DNA of 64,000 nucleotides. It comes from Belliella alkalica (GTDB taxonomy: Bacteria; Bacteroidota; Bacteroidia; Cytophagales; Cyclobacteriaceae). The stretch covers positions 62,001 through 126,000 of the forward strand of contig NZ_JAKZGO010000001.1 of assembly GCF_022549785.1 (NCBI RefSeq), given 5' to 3'. Shown here piece after piece: positions 14,625-22,339 of the stretch; positions within the stretch are counted from its first letter, which is position 1, and each line of letters opens with the position of its first letter. The translations under genes were made by a program, and so were the position numbers. The notes beneath the pieces were generated by a model. It was not told the DNA's origin and ran no database searches. It was given only the letters and a program-made list of their open reading frames with translations.

Positions 14625-14639
14625 AAGTTATAAAAGTAA

Positions 14640-14879
14640 GTTCGACCCCTATCGGGGTCGTGGAATCGTGTTGTTGTTTCGCAATCCACGGGTTTTACCT
14701 GCGGGTATTGAGAAGTTTGATCCCTTCAGGATCAGTAAATTTAATGATGGCGACTTTTTTGAGAGCGATCATGAAATGGTCGAACCTTTTATTAACCCCA
14801 GATAAAATCTGTGGCCAAGGTGACTAAAGACGGAGGCATCAACTCTGAAATGCATGTCCTGATAATCGGGAGGTTAAAC
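14640..14879. repeat. composite inverted repeat cluster 1
   Basis: Left unit 14640-14735 and diverged right unit 14767-14879 in opposite orientation. Left unit: hairpin CGACCCC/GGGGTCG, hairpin around CCACGGGT/ACCTGCGG, linker TATTGAGAAGTT, then hairpin GATCC/GGATC. In the right unit the middle hairpin has become CCCCAGAT AAA ATCTGTGG, with both arms changed together. The cluster fills the gap between two convergent genes and ends 1 base before the next stop codon. Confidence 0.85.
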
Positions 14880-15893
14880 TTATCTATCCTCATTGATCTC
14901 CATCATAATTTCTGCAAATAATTTTGTGGATTTTATTCGGTCTTCTAGGGCATACATGGTGGATACGGCTATCAGCTCGTTCACTCTAGTATTTACAACA
15001 AATTCCAATATTTGTTTTTTCACGGTTTGTTTACTTCCAACAAAGGAATATTTCAGGAATTGATACATGGAAGGATGATTCTTGATTTCCCTTAATTCCT
15101 GGGTCATTTCTGTTGGGGGTTGTACTGGCTCCTTCGCACCTGTTAAAACACCATAAAACATCCTAATCAAAGTAGTAAATAGCTTTTCAGCTTCTTCATC
15201 CGTATCTGCAACAAAAACATTGATCCCTGCAAGGGTGTATGGGTGTTTTAGAAATTCAGAAGGCTGAAATTCTTCGTGGTAAATTTTAAAAGCATTGAAT
15301 AAATGGGTAGCGGCAAAATGACTTGCAAAAGCATAAGGCAATCCTTTTTTGGCTGCCAGATGCGCACTATCTGTACTGGAACCTAATATGTAAAGTGGTA
15401 CACCTGTGCCTTCGGCCAGGGTAGCCCTTACTTTTGAATGCTTATTTTCAACGGAAAAGTAATTTTGGATCTTATCTATTTCCTGTGGAAAAGAGTGAGC
15501 GGCCTTCATAAAATCAGATCTTATGGCCTGCGCTGTTTGCTGATCTGTACCTGGAGCTCTACCTACACCTAAATCTATCCTGTTGGGATATAAATGTGCT
15601 AAAGTACCAAACTGTTCGGCTATAATTAAAGGTGAGTGATTAGGAAGCATCACACCACCCGAACCTACTTTTATGGTATTGGTGTTTTCTGCCACAAAGC
15701 CTATCAAAATGGAAGTAGCACTACTTCCTATATGTTCGGCATTATGATGCTCAGCAAACCAAAACCGCTTGTAGTTTAAAGCTTCAGCTTCTTTTGCTAA
15801 TGCCAGGGAATTATTCAGTGTCTGCTTAATCGTAGCACTTTGTGGAACAAGTGCCAGCTCTAAAATGGAATATGCTATATTTTGATTTTTCAT
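14880..15893 (-). CDS. LLM class flavin-dependent oxidoreductase (luciferase-like)
   Basis: A 337-residue TIM-barrel flavin monooxygenase of the bacterial-luciferase superfamily, MsnO8/YhbW-like group. Evidence: FWFAEHHNAEHIGSS near the N-terminus, IKVGSGGVMLPNHSPL, and RIDLGVGRAPGTD, which are standard for this group. The C-terminal VGSKQTVKKQILEFV is also typical. FMNH2 and O2 are the usual co-substrates; the organic substrate cannot be inferred. It is a single gene whose stop codon abuts repeat cluster 1. The ATG at 15893 gives the usual N-terminus. Confidence 0.85.
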   Translation of the reverse strand: MKNQNIAYSILELALVPQSATIKQTLNNSLALAKEAEALNYKRFWFAEHHNAEHIGSSATSILIGFVAENTNTIKVGSGGVMLPNHSPLIIAEQFGTLAHLYPNRIDLGVGRAPGTDQQTAQAIRSDFMKAAHSFPQEIDKIQNYFSVENKHSKVRATLAEGTGVPLYILGSSTDSAHLAAKKGLPYAFASHFAATHLFNAFKIYHEEFQPSEFLKHPYTLAGINVFVADTDEEAEKLFTTLIRMFYGVLTGAKEPVQPPTEMTQELREIKNHPSMYQFLKYSFVGSKQTVKKQILEFVVNTRVNELIAVSTMYALEDRIKSTKLFAEIMMEINEDR

Positions 15894-17008: not shown

Positions 17009-17166
17009 TTTTTGATATTAGATTGTAGATTTTAGAATTGAATTCCAGTTTAATTGCCTGCTGCTTCAGCTGGAGGCTAGAAATAATACAGAAGCGATCC
17101 AGGCTTTAGCCCAAAATTTTCATTAGTATTTGGGAAAGGGAAATACAAATACATTATAGGAAATAT

Positions 17167-17410
17167 GTTCGACATCCTTCGGGCCTGCCTGTAGCAGACA
17201 GGGTCGGTGGTGGGTGGGATTTGGGTCATTGTTTTCCACGGGTTTCACCCGCGGTTATTGAGAGGTTTGATCCTTTCAGGATCGGGAATTGAGTGATTGA
17301 ATATTGGGTATAATGACCACGAAGAGGTCGAACTTTTCAATAGCCCTAGGTGAAACCTAGGGAAAAGGATGAATAATGATGCGTGGCAAAAATCCCGTGA
17401 GGGGTTGAAC
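17167..17410. repeat. composite inverted repeat cluster 2
   Basis: Left unit 17167-17285 and right unit 17315-17410. The left unit's first hairpin is split by the imperfect palindrome CCTGCCTGTAGCAGACAGG (17184-17202). The right unit carries GACCAC GAA GAGGTC, then CCCTAGGT GAA ACCTAGGG. The 158 bp before it (17009-17166) hold no gene, only a weak GCCTGCTGC/GCTGGAGGC hairpin with a TTCA loop near 17050. Confidence 0.9.
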
Positions 17411-17576: not shown

Positions 17577-17993
17577 CTACTTATCATATTTAATCATTTT
17601 TCCATCTTTAATATAACCCACTACATTAATCTTATATGTTCCATCATACTTCAAATTTTCTTGGTTCTTTTTTATCACATCGTTATCTATTTCCCATTGT
17701 TGCAAATAAGATTTAAACTCTTCAATATGTTTTGTATAAGAAGAGAATCTTTTCATATTATCTTTTTGCAAAATCATAACTTTAAATTTGGAAACCCAAA
17801 TTGTTGGGTTTATAACTCCATTTTTTAATATTAAATCCAAATCATCAATACAAAAATGAGCCTTCTCTCTAATTAACCATTCCAAGTATTCAGGATCATA
17901 TAGAAATATAATTCCAATTTGAATCCCCTTATATTGACCAAAATTAATGGGTTCATTAGATCTATATTTAAATGGGTGTATAAATTTTTTCAT
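17577..17993 (-). CDS. hypothetical protein with ExoX-C-like segment
   Basis: A 138-residue protein I cannot assign firmly. Residues about 16-48 (INFGQYKGIQIG ... DPEYLEWLIREK) match the pattern of the small module found at the C-terminus of ExoX-like exonucleases and in stand-alone Bacteroidota proteins. No exonuclease active-site residues are present. The remainder is Lys/Ile-rich and unrecognised. The gene is AT-rich like its neighbour and sits alone between repeat cluster 2 and another orphan gene, a setting consistent with accessory DNA. Confidence 0.55.
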   Translation of the reverse strand: MKKFIHPFKYRSNEPINFGQYKGIQIGIIFLYDPEYLEWLIREKAHFCIDDLDLILKNGVINPTIWVSKFKVMILQKDNMKRFSSYTKHIEEFKSYLQQWEIDNDVIKKNQENLKYDGTYKINVVGYIKDGKMIKYDK

Positions 17994-18147
17994 TGTTAAA
18001 TGGTTAAAATATTCTGGTAATAATTGGACAATATTTGTTTAACTGACTTTTTTAATCTTAAAAGGGTAAATATTTACAAATACCAAAAGATATAAAAGTT
18101 TAGACAAATCGGCCTTTAAATTAACACTATACATCAAGTGAATCAAT

Positions 18148-18762
18148 TTAAAAGTAGTTACTTAAATCATCAACTTTCTTTTTTTCCTTTTCAATCATTT
18201 TCTCTATTTCTTCTAATGTTTTCTTACTAAATCCAAAATTTGAATAAATAAAAGAATCATATTCTTCATTATTATTAAATTTAACAGACTCAATTGAAAA
18301 ACCCGCTTTCAAATTCTGTCCATGAGTAGAATAATAGCGATTAAACTCTTCTATATTTCTTGTATAAAAAGAAAATTCATAACTCTTATTTGGATGAATT
18401 AAATCATTTTGTTCTACTGATTCATATTGGTAAAAACCAGAACCACTTTTATTGAATCCAATTGATTCTCCAAATGAATTTCTCAAGCTAACATTAAACT
18501 TAAAATGACGAACTGTTTGTTTTGTATTGTTTTTAATTTTGATAGAAAAATACTCTTCGTTTATTTCAATAAGAGTGAAGCTTAAAACTGATCCTAGCTT
18601 TTTTACTCTAGACTCCTGTACTTCTCGATACCTTTCTTCATATTGATTTCTTTTCTTATACGATTCTTTAATTTCCTTTTCTTCATTCTGAATTTTTGTA
18701 TTGTAAGAATACCATCCAAACACTAAAATAAGGCCAATTACCAATGTAATTTTAAACTTCAT
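18148..18762 (-). CDS. hypothetical membrane-anchored protein
   Basis: A 204-residue protein of unknown function. One hydrophobic segment at residues 4-20 (KITLVIGLILVFGWYSY) looks like an uncleaved anchor or signal. A charged coiled-coil-like stretch follows (about 25-55, Glu/Lys/Arg-rich). A strand-rich domain comes next (about 58-170) with the pattern of extracytoplasmic immunoglobulin-like folds (FSIKIKNNTKQTVRHFKFNVSL). A charged helix closes the chain (KKTLEEIEKMIEKEKKK). It is AT-rich and has no clear operon partner. Confidence 0.55.
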   Translation of the reverse strand: MKFKITLVIGLILVFGWYSYNTKIQNEEKEIKESYKKRNQYEERYREVQESRVKKLGSVLSFTLIEINEEYFSIKIKNNTKQTVRHFKFNVSLRNSFGESIGFNKSGSGFYQYESVEQNDLIHPNKSYEFSFYTRNIEEFNRYYSTHGQNLKAGFSIESVKFNNNEEYDSFIYSNFGFSKKTLEEIEKMIEKEKKKVDDLSNYF

Positions 18763-18939: not shown

Positions 18940-19053
18940 AAAATGAAGTGATTAAAAATTACTAATCCTTAAAGATATTTGAATCTGTTGAAACTAAAAA
19001 TTCAAATTCTGAAATTTTGGTTTGGTTGATGAAAAAGCTTTAGCTGAAAATAA

Positions 19054-19375
19054 GTTCGACACCCTTCGGGGTCGTGGGGGGATGGTGGTTTTTCGTTTTA
19101 CACGGGTTTCACCCGCGGCTATTGAGAAGTTTGACCCTTTCAAGGTCGGAGGGAAATGATGTTGACTTGTTATCCGCTGGTTTCACCTGCGGATACACCA
19201 CGGCCAAGTATTGAAAAGTTAGACCACTTCGTGGTCGAGAAATGCCCCTAAGGAATCTGCAAAATTCAATATAAAATCCGACGGTGAAGCCGTCGAACCT
19301 CTCAATAGCCCTAGGTGAAACCTAGGGAAAAGGATGAATGATGATGCGTGGCAACAACCCCGTGAGGGGTTGAAC
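19054..19375. repeat. composite inverted repeat cluster 3 (three units)
   Basis: Left unit 19054-19148. A second, truncated left-type unit at about 19158-19237 has an extended middle hairpin (TATCCGC...GCGGATA) and a decayed insert before TATTGAAAAG. Right unit 19280-19375 has a third hairpin changed to GACGGT GAA GCCGTC with the arms co-varying. It ends 20 bp beyond the stop of the RAYT-like gene. The upstream stretch 18940-19053 shows no gene. Confidence 0.9.
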
Positions 19376-19395
19376 TTTCTCTCTGTAACATCAAA

Positions 19396-19842
19396 CTAAA
19401 GCAAAAACCTCGGATCAAATTTGATTTCATATTCTTCAAGGAGGTTTTTATATTCCTCCAAAAATCTAACTTTTTTGTGATGCTCCTCCTGGTTTTTGAT
19501 GTATTTGATCAGCCTCTCCTTAGCCTTAATTGATTCGGTAAAAGCGCCATAACCATCCTGCCAACCTTTGAAATCAGGAAAGATTCCCTCTCTTACAATA
19601 AAATCACTTGAGGCAAGCTTAATGTCTTTAATTAAATTTGAAACTGCAATTGTTGGATGCACATGCGTCAAAATATGGATATGGTCTTCCACACCATTGA
19701 TCCGGTATAAATGGCAATTCTTCTTTGTCAATAAATGATGGATGTAGGCATAAAGCCTCTTTTTTTCTTGGTGTATAAGTGTATGTTCTCTATTTTTTGT
19801 TGAAAATACAATGTGGTAAATAATCTGTGTGTAAGTGGCCAT
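19396..19842 (-). CDS. REP-associated/IS200-like Y1 tyrosine transposase (RAYT-like)
   Basis: A 148-residue HUH single-strand nuclease of the Y1 transposase family (TnpA_IS200/RAYT). The HUH pair is H54-I-H56 (VEDHIHILTHV). The catalytic tyrosine is Y114 in the helix LIKYIKNQEEHHKK. The N-terminus (YTQIIYHIVFSTKNRE) is typical. Such enzymes cut and join single-stranded DNA at hairpins. There is no TnpB partner and no simple IS200 end pair. Instead, composite hairpin repeats lie 20 bp downstream (cluster 3) and about 90 bp upstream (cluster 4). That is the arrangement expected for a RAYT acting on dispersed REP-like repeats, and I infer these repeats are its substrates. The frame is complete. 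Confidence 0.85.
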   Translation of the reverse strand: MATYTQIIYHIVFSTKNREHTLIHQEKKRLYAYIHHLLTKKNCHLYRINGVEDHIHILTHVHPTIAVSNLIKDIKLASSDFIVREGIFPDFKGWQDGYGAFTESIKAKERLIKYIKNQEEHHKKVRFLEEYKNLLEEYEIKFDPRFLL

Positions 19843-19932
19843 AAAAATGAAAGTTAAAAGTAAAAATGTAATTTCGGGAAAAAAGAACTTAATGTCAAAT
19901 TGGTTCGATATTTTAATTGTGCAGGCATGAAA

Positions 19933-20202
19933 GTTCGACCCTTTAAGGTCTACCTGGCGCAGACAGGGTCGGTGATGGTTGGGATTTTGTTCATCGTTTT
20001 TCCATGGGTTTCACCCGCGGTTCCACCACGGCGGACAAGATATTGAGAGGTTTGATCCTTTCAGGATCGGGAATTGAATATTGTGAATAATGACCACGAA
20101 GTGGTCGAACTTTTCAATACTGTGTCCGCCGTGGCGGAGCCCTAAGTGAAACCTAGGGAAAAAGATGAATGTTGATGGCAAAAATCCCATTAAGGGTTGA
20201 AC
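19933..20202. repeat. composite inverted repeat cluster 4, with three nested palindromes
   Basis: Left unit 19933-20070, right unit 20092-20202. Both carry the GC-rich palindrome TCCRCCnnGGCGGA (20022-20035 and 20125-20138) at the same structural point, between the middle hairpin and the TATTGAG linker, in mirror orientation. The first hairpin is also split by a TCTACCTGGCGCAGACAGG insert near 19949-19967, as in cluster 2. Third hairpins are GATCCT TTC AGGATC and GACCAC GAA GTGGTC. Confidence 0.9.
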
Positions 20203-21005: not shown

Positions 21006-21203
21006 TTTTAAATAGATGTAGAAAAATATCATCGAAAAATTATGAAAATTGGTGGTTTGTCAATTTGTGGTCAGAAGATTGGTAAATTTATGGTTATCAA
21101 TTTTTCACTAATTAACAATCCTAAAGTGCCTGCCATTGATTTTAATATTTCTCCACAATTTTAACCTTGTACTCCATTTTCCGCCGCAGTAAGTATATTT
21201 TTG

Positions 21204-21211
21204 TATCTTTG
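21204..21211 (+). promoter_or_regulatory. putative -7 element of hppD
   Basis: TATCTTTG, an exact TAnnTTTG match, 33 bp before the hppD ATG. No good TTTG was found at the usual upstream spacing. Confidence 0.45.
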
Positions 21212-21244
21212 CTTTACAAGTTATAAACCCAAATTCTTAGAAAA

Positions 21245-22339
21245 ATGGAACAAGATTTTCTCCCACTTTTAGGGACAGACTACATAGAGTTGTATGTAGG
21301 AAATGCAAAACAATCAGCTCTTTATTATCAATATGCTTTTGGTTATGAATTAATAGCCTATGCAGGCCCTGAAACAGGCATCAAAGACAGGGCTTCCTAT
21401 GTGCTCAAGCAAGACAAAATTCGCTTAGTATTGACAACACAGCTACATGAAAACCATCCCATTGCTGACCATATCAAAAAACATGGTGATGGTGTAAAGG
21501 TTTTGGCTCTATGGGTCGATGATGCAGAGCAATCATGGAAAGAAACTACCTCTAGGGGTGCAGTCTCTTATGAAGAGCCAAAAACGATTTCAGATGAACA
21601 TGGTGAAGTGAAAGTTGCGTCCATAAGAACATATGGCGAGACTATTCATACTTTTGTAGAGAGAAAAAATTATAAAGGAATATTCCTGCCAGGATACAAA
21701 CCAAGAAAAAGTCAGTACACCCCAACTCCTATTGGATTAAAATACATTGATCATTGTGTAGGAAATGTAGGTTGGGGAGAAATGAATAAATGGGTTGAGT
21801 TCTATGAAAATGTGATGGGATTCAAACTTTTGATCACATTTGATGACAAAGATATCTCAACAGAGTACTCCGCATTGATGTCAAAGGTGGTTTCGAACGG
21901 AAATGGCTATATCAAATTCCCTATAAACGAACCTGCTGAAGGAAAGAAAAAGTCGCAGATCGAAGAATACTTGGATTTTTATAATGGATCAGGTGTACAA
22001 CACATGGCGATAGCAACTGATGACATCGTCCATACGGTATCTGAATTAAGAAAAAGAGGTGTAGAATTTTTGGAAGTCCCTTCCTCCTACTATGACGATT
22101 TATTGGACCGAGTTGGAGAAATTGATGAGGATCTACAGCCGTTGAAAGATCTTAATATTCTTGTGGATAGAGATGATGAAGGCTATTTACTTCAAATATT
22201 CACCAAACCAATTCAAGATAGGCCAACCTTATTTTTTGAAATAATTCAGAGAAAAGGTGCTAAATCATTTGGCAAAGGCAATTTCAAAGCGTTATTCGAA
22301 GCAATCGAAAGAGAACAGGAATTGAGAGGAAATTTATAA
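21245..22339 (+). CDS. hppD: 4-hydroxyphenylpyruvate dioxygenase
   Basis: Fe(II) enzyme converting 4-hydroxyphenylpyruvate to homogentisate in tyrosine catabolism. The 364-residue chain has two vicinal-oxygen-chelate halves. The metal triad is visible in the C-terminal half: H170 (YIDHCVGNV), H253 (VQHMAIATDD) and E332 (LFFEIIQRKG). The C-terminal helix FGKGNFKALFEAIEREQ is diagnostic. Length is normal. Homogentisate dioxygenase is not in the window. It has its own promoter-like TATCTTTG and is followed by a terminator. Confidence 0.97.
   Translation: MEQDFLPLLGTDYIELYVGNAKQSALYYQYAFGYELIAYAGPETGIKDRASYVLKQDKIRLVLTTQLHENHPIADHIKKHGDGVKVLALWVDDAEQSWKETTSRGAVSYEEPKTISDEHGEVKVASIRTYGETIHTFVERKNYKGIFLPGYKPRKSQYTPTPIGLKYIDHCVGNVGWGEMNKWVEFYENVMGFKLLITFDDKDISTEYSALMSKVVSNGNGYIKFPINEPAEGKKKSQIEEYLDFYNGSGVQHMAIATDDIVHTVSELRKRGVEFLEVPSSYYDDLLDRVGEIDEDLQPLKDLNILVDRDDEGYLLQIFTKPIQDRPTLFFEIIQRKGAKSFGKGNFKALFEAIEREQELRGNL

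What the first reader, a model, noticed from the sequence alone, without database searches (positions are those of the whole stretch)
19054..20202. RAYT-like transposase embedded between its own repeat clusters
The Y1 transposase gene has an inverted-pair cluster 20 bp past its stop and another about 90 bp before its start. In Proteobacteria RAYT genes are flanked by inverted REPs in the same way. Here the repeats are larger and have three hairpins, which may mark a distinct RAYT group with longer substrates.
Basis: partly seen in the sequence, partly recalled or inferred. Interest (0 to 1): 0.7.

Follow-up and report, generated by a model that had tools for sequence, protein, structure and literature searches.

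The report
Hairpin-repeat system of a Y1 transposase
A small DNA-cutting enzyme gene in this bacterium is bracketed by its own multi-hairpin repeats, and the same pairing recurs in many of its relatives, which suggests a previously unrecognised kind of enzyme-plus-repeat mobile DNA.

Summary
The window gene (19396-19842, minus strand, 148 aa) is an intact Y1 HUH transposase under purifying selection, bracketed by inverted three-hairpin arms 17 nt past its stop and 87 nt before its start. It is not a canonical RAYT: its Y-x3-Q-x2-HH signature fits "subclass 1.2" of Quentin et al. 2018, a sister group of IS200 TnpA whose table entry for REPs is "no". I find repeats. In a phylum-wide sample, 33 of 41 subclass 1.2 genes share at least 14 nt exactly between their flanks, against 3 of 29 distant controls. 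A covariance model of arms from Belliella and close relatives finds arms beside homologues in records assigned to other phyla; 63 of 66 matches lie within 1 kb of the gene, with mostly fixed polarity. The four paralogues here have different repeat families. Flank similarity rises with protein identity. Stems covary while loop and linker stay fixed. In three Flavobacterium genomes the repeats are dispersed as REPIN-like doublets. Best reading: a REPtron-like enzyme-substrate pair in another Y1 subclass. Binding and cleavage are inferred, not shown. In Belliella, doublets also separate neighbouring genes, an untested cassette-like pattern.

The parts
19396..19842 (-). Y1 (HUH) transposase gene of subclass 1.2 type, 148 aa; HxH at residues 54 and 56, Tyr114, Y-x3-Q-x2-HH signature
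   Evidence: AF2 model mean pLDDT 89.7, best PDB matches ISDra2 and IS608 TnpA; dN/dS 0.06 and 0.017 against G001 and G002
19274..19378 (+). doublet A, gene-proximal three-hairpin arm on the 3' side of the gene
   Evidence: CM hit 123 bits (in the training set); covariation
19051..19153 (-). doublet A, distal arm
   Evidence: CM hit 77.6 bits
19158..19242 (-). extra, shorter arm inside doublet A
   Evidence: CM hit 41.1 bits
19930..20074 (-). doublet B, gene-proximal arm on the 5' side of the gene
   Evidence: CM hit 57.2 bits
20086..20205 (+). doublet B, distal arm; overlaps the end of the neighbouring 154-aa ORF by 2 nt
   Evidence: CM hit 72.7 bits
20780..20883 (-). doublet C, arm
   Evidence: CM hit 88.9 bits
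20904..21008 (+). doublet C, arm
   Evidence: CM hit 115.4 bits (in the training set)
17164..17289 (-). doublet D, arm
   Evidence: CM hit 64.3 bits
17309..17413 (+). doublet D, arm
   Evidence: CM hit 114.1 bits (in the training set)
14637..14739 (-). doublet E, arm
   Evidence: CM hit 91.5 bits (in the training set)
14761..14882 (+). doublet E, weaker second arm
   Evidence: CM hit 46.6 bits
20204..20668 (-). 154-aa ORF enclosed between doublets B and C (possible passenger); a similar ORF lies beside Y1 in G001, none in the mapped G002 stretch
17577..18762 (-). two ORFs (138 aa, ExoX-like C-terminal; 204 aa) enclosed between doublets D and A; not seen in the mapped G001 and G002 stretches

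Best explanation
The gene and its repeats form a REPtron-like enzyme-substrate pair built on a subclass 1.2 Y1 transposase. Shown by sequence: the gene is bracketed by inverted arms of short hairpins. In the window's clade an arm is h1, a fixed linker ending in [A/G]TAG, h2, a second spacer and h3; two arms in opposite orientation make a doublet of about 230-330 bp in the window. Stems vary with compensation while the linker and the h2 loop are conserved, repeat type follows transposase type, and in three Flavobacterium genomes doublets are scattered over the genome. Inferred: the HUH enzyme binds the arms as folded single-stranded DNA, uses loop and linker for strand and site choice, cleaves with Tyr114 near the arm borders and joins ends. 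That would copy or move doublets without the gene, build local tandem arrays, and let gene plus repeats spread together. Strong purifying selection suggests the enzyme is kept for a function.
For: Flank repeats: 64 of 95 genes and 33 of 41 in a phylum-wide sample share at least 14 nt exactly between the 1-kb flanks; distant controls 1 of 46 and 3 of 29. The three other paralogues here are 33-37% identical to the window protein and have different flanking repeats. CM from 22 arms: 66 hits in 26 of 75 other loci, 63 within 1 kb of the Y1 gene, where 17% of the bases lie; nearest upstream arm + in 21 of 23 loci, nearest downstream arm - in 17 of 19. Covariation: 93.8% of cells paired, 9 of 21 pairs with two-sided changes, 0 of 500 shuffles as high. 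Flank similarity: 0.2% of pairs at 30-40% protein identity, 23% at 60-70%, 81% at 70-90%; distant flanks 0-0.4% below 90%. GNA/TNC loops in 207 of 321 triloop hairpins near, 12 of 69 far. Flavobacterium: 17, 51 and 49 matches in three genomes with the gene in the same context, 2 and 0 in two with divergent genes. dN/dS 0.06 and 0.017.
Against: No binding, cleavage or movement was tested. In Belliella the window's repeat has few dispersed copies (13 of 18 own-genome matches lie at C1:76-83 kb), unlike classical REPs; for the B3 family most own-genome matches (12 of 16) lie in a Y1-less array, not beside the gene. 8 of 41 subclass 1.2 genes had no shared flank repeat at the threshold. Perfect hairpins of at least 6 bp in both flanks were found in only 55 of 131 genes (7 of 61 controls), and the B2 flanks had none. 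Flavobacterium doublets sit mostly between convergent ORFs (12 of 15 with both neighbours known, some of them the same site in two species), which also fits terminators. Repeats persist in G007, without any subclass 1.2 gene.
Confidence: 0.72

Rival explanations
1. An ordinary IS200-like insertion sequence whose ends happen to carry several hairpins; the unit repeat-gene-repeat transposes as a whole.
For: Nearest solved folds are ISDra2 and IS608 TnpA. At the B2 locus G000 and G002 carry repeat-gene-repeat while in G003 the two neighbouring genes are contiguous, and G001 has a repeat match but no gene at that place. Arms bracket the gene in inverted orientation.
Against: The paralogues here are only 33-37% identical to the window protein. 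In G020 the class 1.1 gene occurs in many copies (four of four read carry the same core sequence), while its two subclass 1.2 genes differ from each other. Near-identical subclass 1.2 copies seen were a tandem pair (L024) and a pair with the same ORF layout on both sides (L044/L046). Doublets exist without the gene. 8 of 10 class 1.1 rows had no shared flank repeat of 14 nt.
Confidence: 0.15
2. The hairpins are bidirectional transcription terminators or RNA elements, unrelated to the enzyme, that accumulate in intergenic space.
For: In Flavobacterium 12 of 15 fetched sites with both neighbours known lie between convergent ORFs, against 11 of 87 adjacent ORF pairs in eight other Flavobacterium loci; three of these sites are counted in two species each.
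Against: CM hits concentrate beside Y1 genes with mostly fixed polarity, repeat families differ between paralogues and follow the protein, and the linker is conserved. A terminator needs none of these.
Confidence: 0.07
3. A canonical RAYT (class 2 TnpA-REP) with unusual REPs.
For: Gene bracketed by inverted palindromes; [A/G]TAG at the foot of h2 resembles the GTAG foot of REPs.
Against: No Y-x3-NP motif; REP_Tyr_transpos 21 bits against a cut-off of 80; groups with class 1; GTAG foot not clearly enriched (14 of 1350 near, 2 of 380 far).
Confidence: 0.02
4. A cassette system: doublets act as recombination sites and the enzyme shuffles passenger genes between them, in the manner of integron attC sites.
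For: In the window five doublets separate Y1 from neighbouring genes; G002 has four related 361-362-aa ORFs each bounded by repeats beside Y1, not present in the mapped G000 stretch; a repeat array with ORFs and no Y1 lies at G000:C95.
Against: Only 11 of 58 gene entries with at least 9 kb held had extra clusters further out, two of them the same B. calami locus. Homologous recombination between repeats and tandem duplication explain the same patterns.
Confidence: 0.04

Closest known systems
TnpA-Y1 subclass 1.2 (Quentin et al. 2018, PMC6006769)
   Same: Signature Y-x3-Q-x2-HH, about 148 aa, WQ motif, low copy number, Bacteroidetes; close to IS200 TnpA
   Different: Its table gives REP as 'no' and its text says these genes are generally without typical terminal IS200 structures; here most sampled genes share repeats between their flanks, and homologues also occur in records titled as other phyla
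REPtrons, RAYT plus REP/REPIN (class 2 TnpA-REP)
   Same: Y1 gene flanked by inverted palindromes of its own repeat family; doublets dispersed in some genomes; a stem with a 3-nt loop is a known REP substrate (S. maltophilia, PMC8266576)
   Different: Enzyme belongs to class 1, not class 2; ATAG rather than GTAG at the h2 foot in the window; arms hold two or three hairpins with a conserved linker; in Belliella repeats are mostly in a few places
TIRYT/TIRtron (De Nocera et al. 2013, PMC3733652)
   Same: Y1 genes bracketed by inverted repeats, some self-complementary, some in moderately abundant families
   Different: TIRYTs are RAYT homologues, 20 of 26 in subclass 2.1 according to Quentin et al.; their shared TIR motif GGGGWSAS is not the arm described here
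IS200/IS605 elements (IS608, ISDra2)
   Same: HUH-Y1 fold, hairpin-bearing ends
   Different: Paralogues here are divergent, not copies, and complete doublets lie on both sides rather than distinct LE and RE

Membership tests
TnpA-Y1 subclass 1.2 (Quentin 2018) | Y-x3-Q-x2-HH signature, DH[IV]H, WQ | tested here: met
   window protein has DHIH, GWQ and YIKNQEEHH
TnpA-Y1 subclass 1.2 (Quentin 2018) | length about 148 aa | tested here: met
   148 aa
TnpA-Y1 subclass 1.2 (Quentin 2018) | own clade beside IS200 TnpA | tested here: inconclusive
   85 rows (of 119 dereplicated) on one side of a branch against 10 others, but SH-aLRT only 80 and long branches flagged
TnpA-Y1 subclass 1.2 (Quentin 2018) | no associated REP-like repeats (as reported) | tested here: not met
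   33 of 41 and 64 of 95 genes with shared flank repeats; I read this as a correction of the description, not as exclusion
RAYT / class 2 TnpA-REP | Y-x3-NP motif and family model | tested here: not met
   YIKNQ; NF047646 21 bits against cut-off 80
RAYT / class 2 TnpA-REP | GT[AG]G tetranucleotide at the hairpin foot | tested here: not met
   h2 foot in the window's arms is ATAG; over all genes GTAG 14 of 1350 near and 2 of 380 far, ATAG 41 of 1350 and 0 of 380. GTGG was not tallied
REPtron | gene flanked by its own repeat family in inverted pairs | tested here: met
REPtron | many dispersed intergenic copies of the repeat | tested here: inconclusive
   few in Belliella for the window's family; about 8, 25 and 23 sites in three Flavobacterium genomes (my count)
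REPtron | enzyme cleaves single-stranded repeat DNA | not testable with these tools
   needs biochemistry
IS200/IS605 insertion sequence | near-identical copies dispersed in the genome | tested here: not met
   own genome: four subclass 1.2 genes, the other three 33-37% identical to the window's

The most novel reading that the evidence does not exclude
The doublets are folded single-strand recombination sites, and the subclass 1.2 enzyme captures and shuffles genes between them, so that Belliella carries an integron-like cassette array (with Y1-less arrays elsewhere) run by a Y1 HUH transposase instead of a tyrosine recombinase.
Probability: 0.08. Interest if true: 0.88.

Novelty: new variant of a known kind. 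Interest (0 to 1): 0.63.

Why it matters
Subclass 1.2 was described as IS200-like proteins without insertion-sequence features and without REPs, so their substrate was unknown. A gene-specific, covarying, multi-hairpin partner supplies a concrete substrate to test and extends the enzyme-plus-repeat association to a second branch of the Y1 family. Because the repeat follows the protein and the arm has a fixed linker and h2 loop, binding and cleavage rules can be predicted and tested directly, and cross-pairing of the four enzymes and repeat families inside one Belliella genome offers a built-in specificity test.

Tried and rejected
Canonical RAYT membership: rejected on signature and model score. 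CGTC-tagged REPs (De Nocera 2013) as the same repeats: rejected, since the passages seen describe 4-5 nt loops and CCA tails, unlike these triloop arms. GTAG foot as in REPs: not clearly enriched. An ATAG foot occurs in 20 loci; 14 of these have proteins at least 45% identical to the window's and 6 lie at 30-41%, so it is not confined to one clade. Cassette reading: kept only as the novel case (11 of 58). Clean empty-site boundaries at B2: the junction is visible in G003, but flanks there are only about 76-77% identical, so the insertion ends cannot be fixed to the base. B3 and B4 loci gave no simple empty site. G020 with 26 matches looked like a counter-example to low copy number; four of its 54-bit copies were read and are of class 1.1 type (YVKYQEKEDK), the two higher-scoring ones read are subclass 1.2. 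Bertels et al. 2017 is not held; what I say of its groups comes from Quentin et al. RepRanger (PMC12306157, one passage seen) lists many REPs in two Flavobacterium species; the words RAYT and transposase do not occur in its text.

Full report
What is there. The window lies in a draft genome of 4.95 Mb in 105 contigs. The closest named matches to its protein are in Belliella calami (99%), Pararhodonellum (84%) and Algoriphagus; I call the genus Belliella by inference. The gene at 19396-19842 (-) encodes a 148-aa Y1 transposase with DHIH, GWQ and YIKNQEEHH motifs. Its AlphaFold2 model (mean pLDDT 89.7) matches the ISDra2 and IS608 TnpA structures best (E about 1e-9 to 1e-7) and the REP-associated transposase 4er8 more weakly (E 1.4e-5). 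Against G001 and G002 dN/dS is 0.06 and 0.017, so the protein is under strong purifying selection.

The repeats. Clusters lie directly on both sides of the gene and at three further places in 14.6-21.0 kb. Each is an inverted pair of arms. An arm of this family holds three hairpins: h1 (for example GATCCTGAAAGGATC), a linker AACTTYTCAATAG, h2 (CCCTAGGTGAAACCTAGGG), a second spacer, and h3. I aligned 22 arms from Belliella, Pararhodonellum and Algoriphagus loci: 20 of the 27 matches (six further arms of L143 and a weak L037 match were left out) and two of L028 picked by eye. 93.8% of stem cells are paired, 9 of 21 pairs show changes on both sides, and no shuffle of 500 reaches the observed covariation score; the measure 'further pair types' does not exceed the shuffles. 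The strictly invariant columns lie in the linker and in h2. The structure was read from these sequences, so the slid controls favour it.

Which protein group. Quentin et al. 2018 (PMC6006769; passages and sections 12 and 18 seen) define subclass 1.2 by Y-x3-Q-x2-HH, a length near 148 aa, low copy number and presence mostly in Cyanobacteria and Bacteroidetes. Their table gives REP 'no', and they call it the first characterisation. The window protein fits. In a tree of 95 rows, the 85 subclass 1.2 proteins (of 119 after dereplication) form one side of a branch with SH-aLRT 80, so not strongly shown, against nine class 1.1 rows and one class 2 row; long branches were flagged.

Four paralogues. 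The genome has four subclass 1.2 genes; the other three are 33-37% identical to the window protein. Each is flanked on both sides by repeats that differ from those of the others. Those of B3 and B4 are hairpin arms; those of B2 are direct repeats with weaker palindromes, without any perfect hairpin of at least 6 bp in its 1-kb flanks. Matches of three families in eight Belliella genomes: in the own genome, 13 of 18 for the window's family lie at C1:76-83 kb around the gene, 12 of 13 for B4 beside its gene, but only 3 of 16 for B3, of which 12 lie in an array at C95:99-106 kb without a Y1 gene. For the window's family the counts are 18, 14, 28, 6 and 9 in G000-G004, 3 in G007 and 0 in G005 and G006; G005 and G007 have no subclass 1.2 match and G006 only a fragment.

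Is it general? A scan with the four-protein alignment gave 79 loci; this retrieval used WQD and YI[KQ][NK]Q patterns, so the signature is partly imposed. Together with the loci, without duplicates of the window locus and hits under 100 bits, I had 110 gene entries (two without the exact signature, some near copies). 95 had at least 600 nt on both sides, and 64 of 95 share an exact repeat of at least 14 nt between the 1-kb flanks, against 1 of 46 control pairs 3.5-4.5 kb away. For a sample not chosen by these patterns I searched 198 genomes drawn evenly from the phylum with the IS200 family model (the match list was cut at the better-scoring rows) and fetched 59 regions picked by hand from the listed rows over genera. 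Two had no central hit and four had short flanks. Of the rest, 33 of 41 subclass 1.2 genes share at least 14 nt (28 of 41 at least 20), against 3 of 29 control pairs (0 of 29 at least 20) and 4 of 12 other rows; those 12 are two subclass 1.2-like rows without the exact signature and ten of class 1.1 type, of which 2 reach 14 nt. A few long matches may be repeated coding sequence rather than hairpin arms.

Arms in other phyla. A covariance model from the 22 arms was run over the window and 75 other loci: 71 of the 79 and four Belliella regions. L025-L028, L030 and L036 were left out, four of them because they gave training arms, and L024 and L046 as near copies. It gave 66 hits at E up to 0.1 in 26 of the 75 loci, all but one full length. 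63 of 66 lie within 1 kb of the Y1 gene, zones that hold 132 of 766 kb searched. The nearest upstream arm points + in 21 of 23 loci and the nearest downstream arm - in 17 of 19. Loci with hits include records titled Verrucomicrobia, Limisphaerales, Acidobacteria, Phycisphaerae, Pontiellaceae and Rhodohalobacter; many are metagenome bins, so single assignments may be wrong. Weak hits also appear beside the B4 paralogue (L139). The other 49 loci gave none, so this arm type is a feature of part of the subclass.

The repeat follows the enzyme. Over pairs of 148 dereplicated genes with enough aligned columns, the share of pairs with flank similarity of at least 36 bits is 0.2% at 30-40% protein identity, 1.2% at 40-50%, 4.2% at 50-60%, 23% at 60-70% and 81% at 70-90%; the distant flanks stay at 0-0.4% in these bins. 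Above 90% identity whole neighbourhoods are shared, so that bin says nothing.

Loop signature. Near these genes, hairpins with stems of at least 6 bp and 3-nt loops occur at 1.41 per kb against 0.195 per kb at a distance, and 207 of 321 have GNA (or TNC on the other strand) loops against 12 of 69. At least one GNA/TNC triloop hairpin lies within 1 kb in 59 of 131 genes against 1 of 61 control pairs; a hairpin with a 3-4 nt loop in both flanks is found in 55 of 131 against 7 of 61. So this is common, not universal. That GNA triloops form unusually stable DNA mini-hairpins is recalled knowledge; one search was only a search listing. ATAG at a hairpin foot: 41 of 1350 near, 0 of 380 far, in 20 loci; GTAG: 14 and 2.

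Dispersal. In Flavobacterium the L072 family gives 17, 51 and 49 matches in three genomes whose gene lies in the same context, and 2 and 0 in two Flavobacterium genomes with divergent genes (40 of 53-138 candidates were scored per genome, so the larger counts are lower bounds). By my reading of the listing these are about 8, 25 and 23 sites. Twenty chosen sites were fetched: most are doublets of about 170-200 bp; 12 of 15 with both neighbours known lie between convergent ORFs, three of these sites being counted in two species each; and several sites are shared between species at 88-93% identity. That matches REPIN behaviour and also suits terminators. The L064 family gives 16 matches at about 8 places in its own genome and none in that of L065.

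Insertion history. At the B2 locus G000 and G002 carry repeat-gene-repeat between a TrkA-like gene (name by eye) and a 219-aa ORF, G003 has the two neighbours contiguous, and G001 holds a B2-type repeat match without the gene. Gain in one lineage or loss by recombination between repeats are both possible.

Cassette-like arrays. In the window doublets alternate with genes: E, luciferase-like and YihY-like genes (names by eye), D, two ORFs, A, Y1, B, a 154-aa ORF, C. The mapped G001 stretch holds Y1 and a similar 154-aa ORF, the G002 stretch two Y1 copies without it. At the B3 locus G002 has four related 361-362-aa ORFs, each bounded by repeats, that are not in the mapped G000 stretch; G000:C95 has repeat arrays with ORFs and no Y1. 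Elsewhere extra clusters are uncommon (11 of 58 gene entries with at least 9 kb held).

Copy number. In one search, 22 of the 23 genomes with a match have 1-7 matches; G020 has 26. Four of its many 54-bit matches were read and are class 1.1 proteins with the same core sequence, while its two higher-scoring genes are different subclass 1.2 proteins.

Mechanism. Shown: an intact, selected HUH-Y1 gene; gene-specific inverted multi-hairpin arms with covarying stems and a fixed linker and h2 loop; largely conserved polarity around the gene; dispersal of doublets in one genus. Inferred: the arms are the single-stranded substrate, the linker or the [A/G]TAG foot guides cleavage, and the enzyme spreads or reshapes doublets. 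TnpA-REP enzymes cleave and rejoin their REPs in vitro (PMC8266576, passages seen), including one REP with an 8-bp stem and a 3-nt loop.

Novelty. In the held open-access library, the listings of searches showed no paper describing REP-like repeats for subclass 1.2; most subscription papers are missing from it, and Bertels et al. 2017 was not available.

Noticed in passing
L136 (G002:C32:403000-419000), 4.6-12.9 kb: Four related 361-362-aa ORFs (lipoprotein-like by eye), each bounded by the repeats of the neighbouring Y1 gene, not present in the mapped G000 stretch.
   Followed up: partly
L137 (G000:C95:96000-109000): Tandem six-hairpin repeat units at about 254-bp spacing, in arrays separated by ORFs, with no Y1 gene matched in that stretch.
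   Followed up: partly
L255 (G007:C14:326000-329500): B2-type repeat array around two ORFs in a genome without any subclass 1.2 match.
   Followed up: partly
window 21010-21245 and L142, L143: In the G001 and G002 stretches the repeat array ends at a 320-aa ORF, while in the window doublet C is followed by a different gene (364 aa), which suggests a rearrangement at the repeats.
   Followed up: no
L005 (G000:C40:151591-151806): A fifth, class 2-like Y1 gene (YIHENP motif) in the same genome; its flanks were not examined.
   Followed up: no
L044 and L046 (Siphonobacter sp. contig NZ_NHPP01000011.1): Two copies of a Y1 locus in opposite orientation about 20 kb apart with the same ORF layout on both sides; not aligned.
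   Followed up: no
L259 and L268 (two Flavobacterium genomes): Matching doublet site at which a segment with a 170-aa ORF is present in one genome and missing from the other.
   Followed up: no
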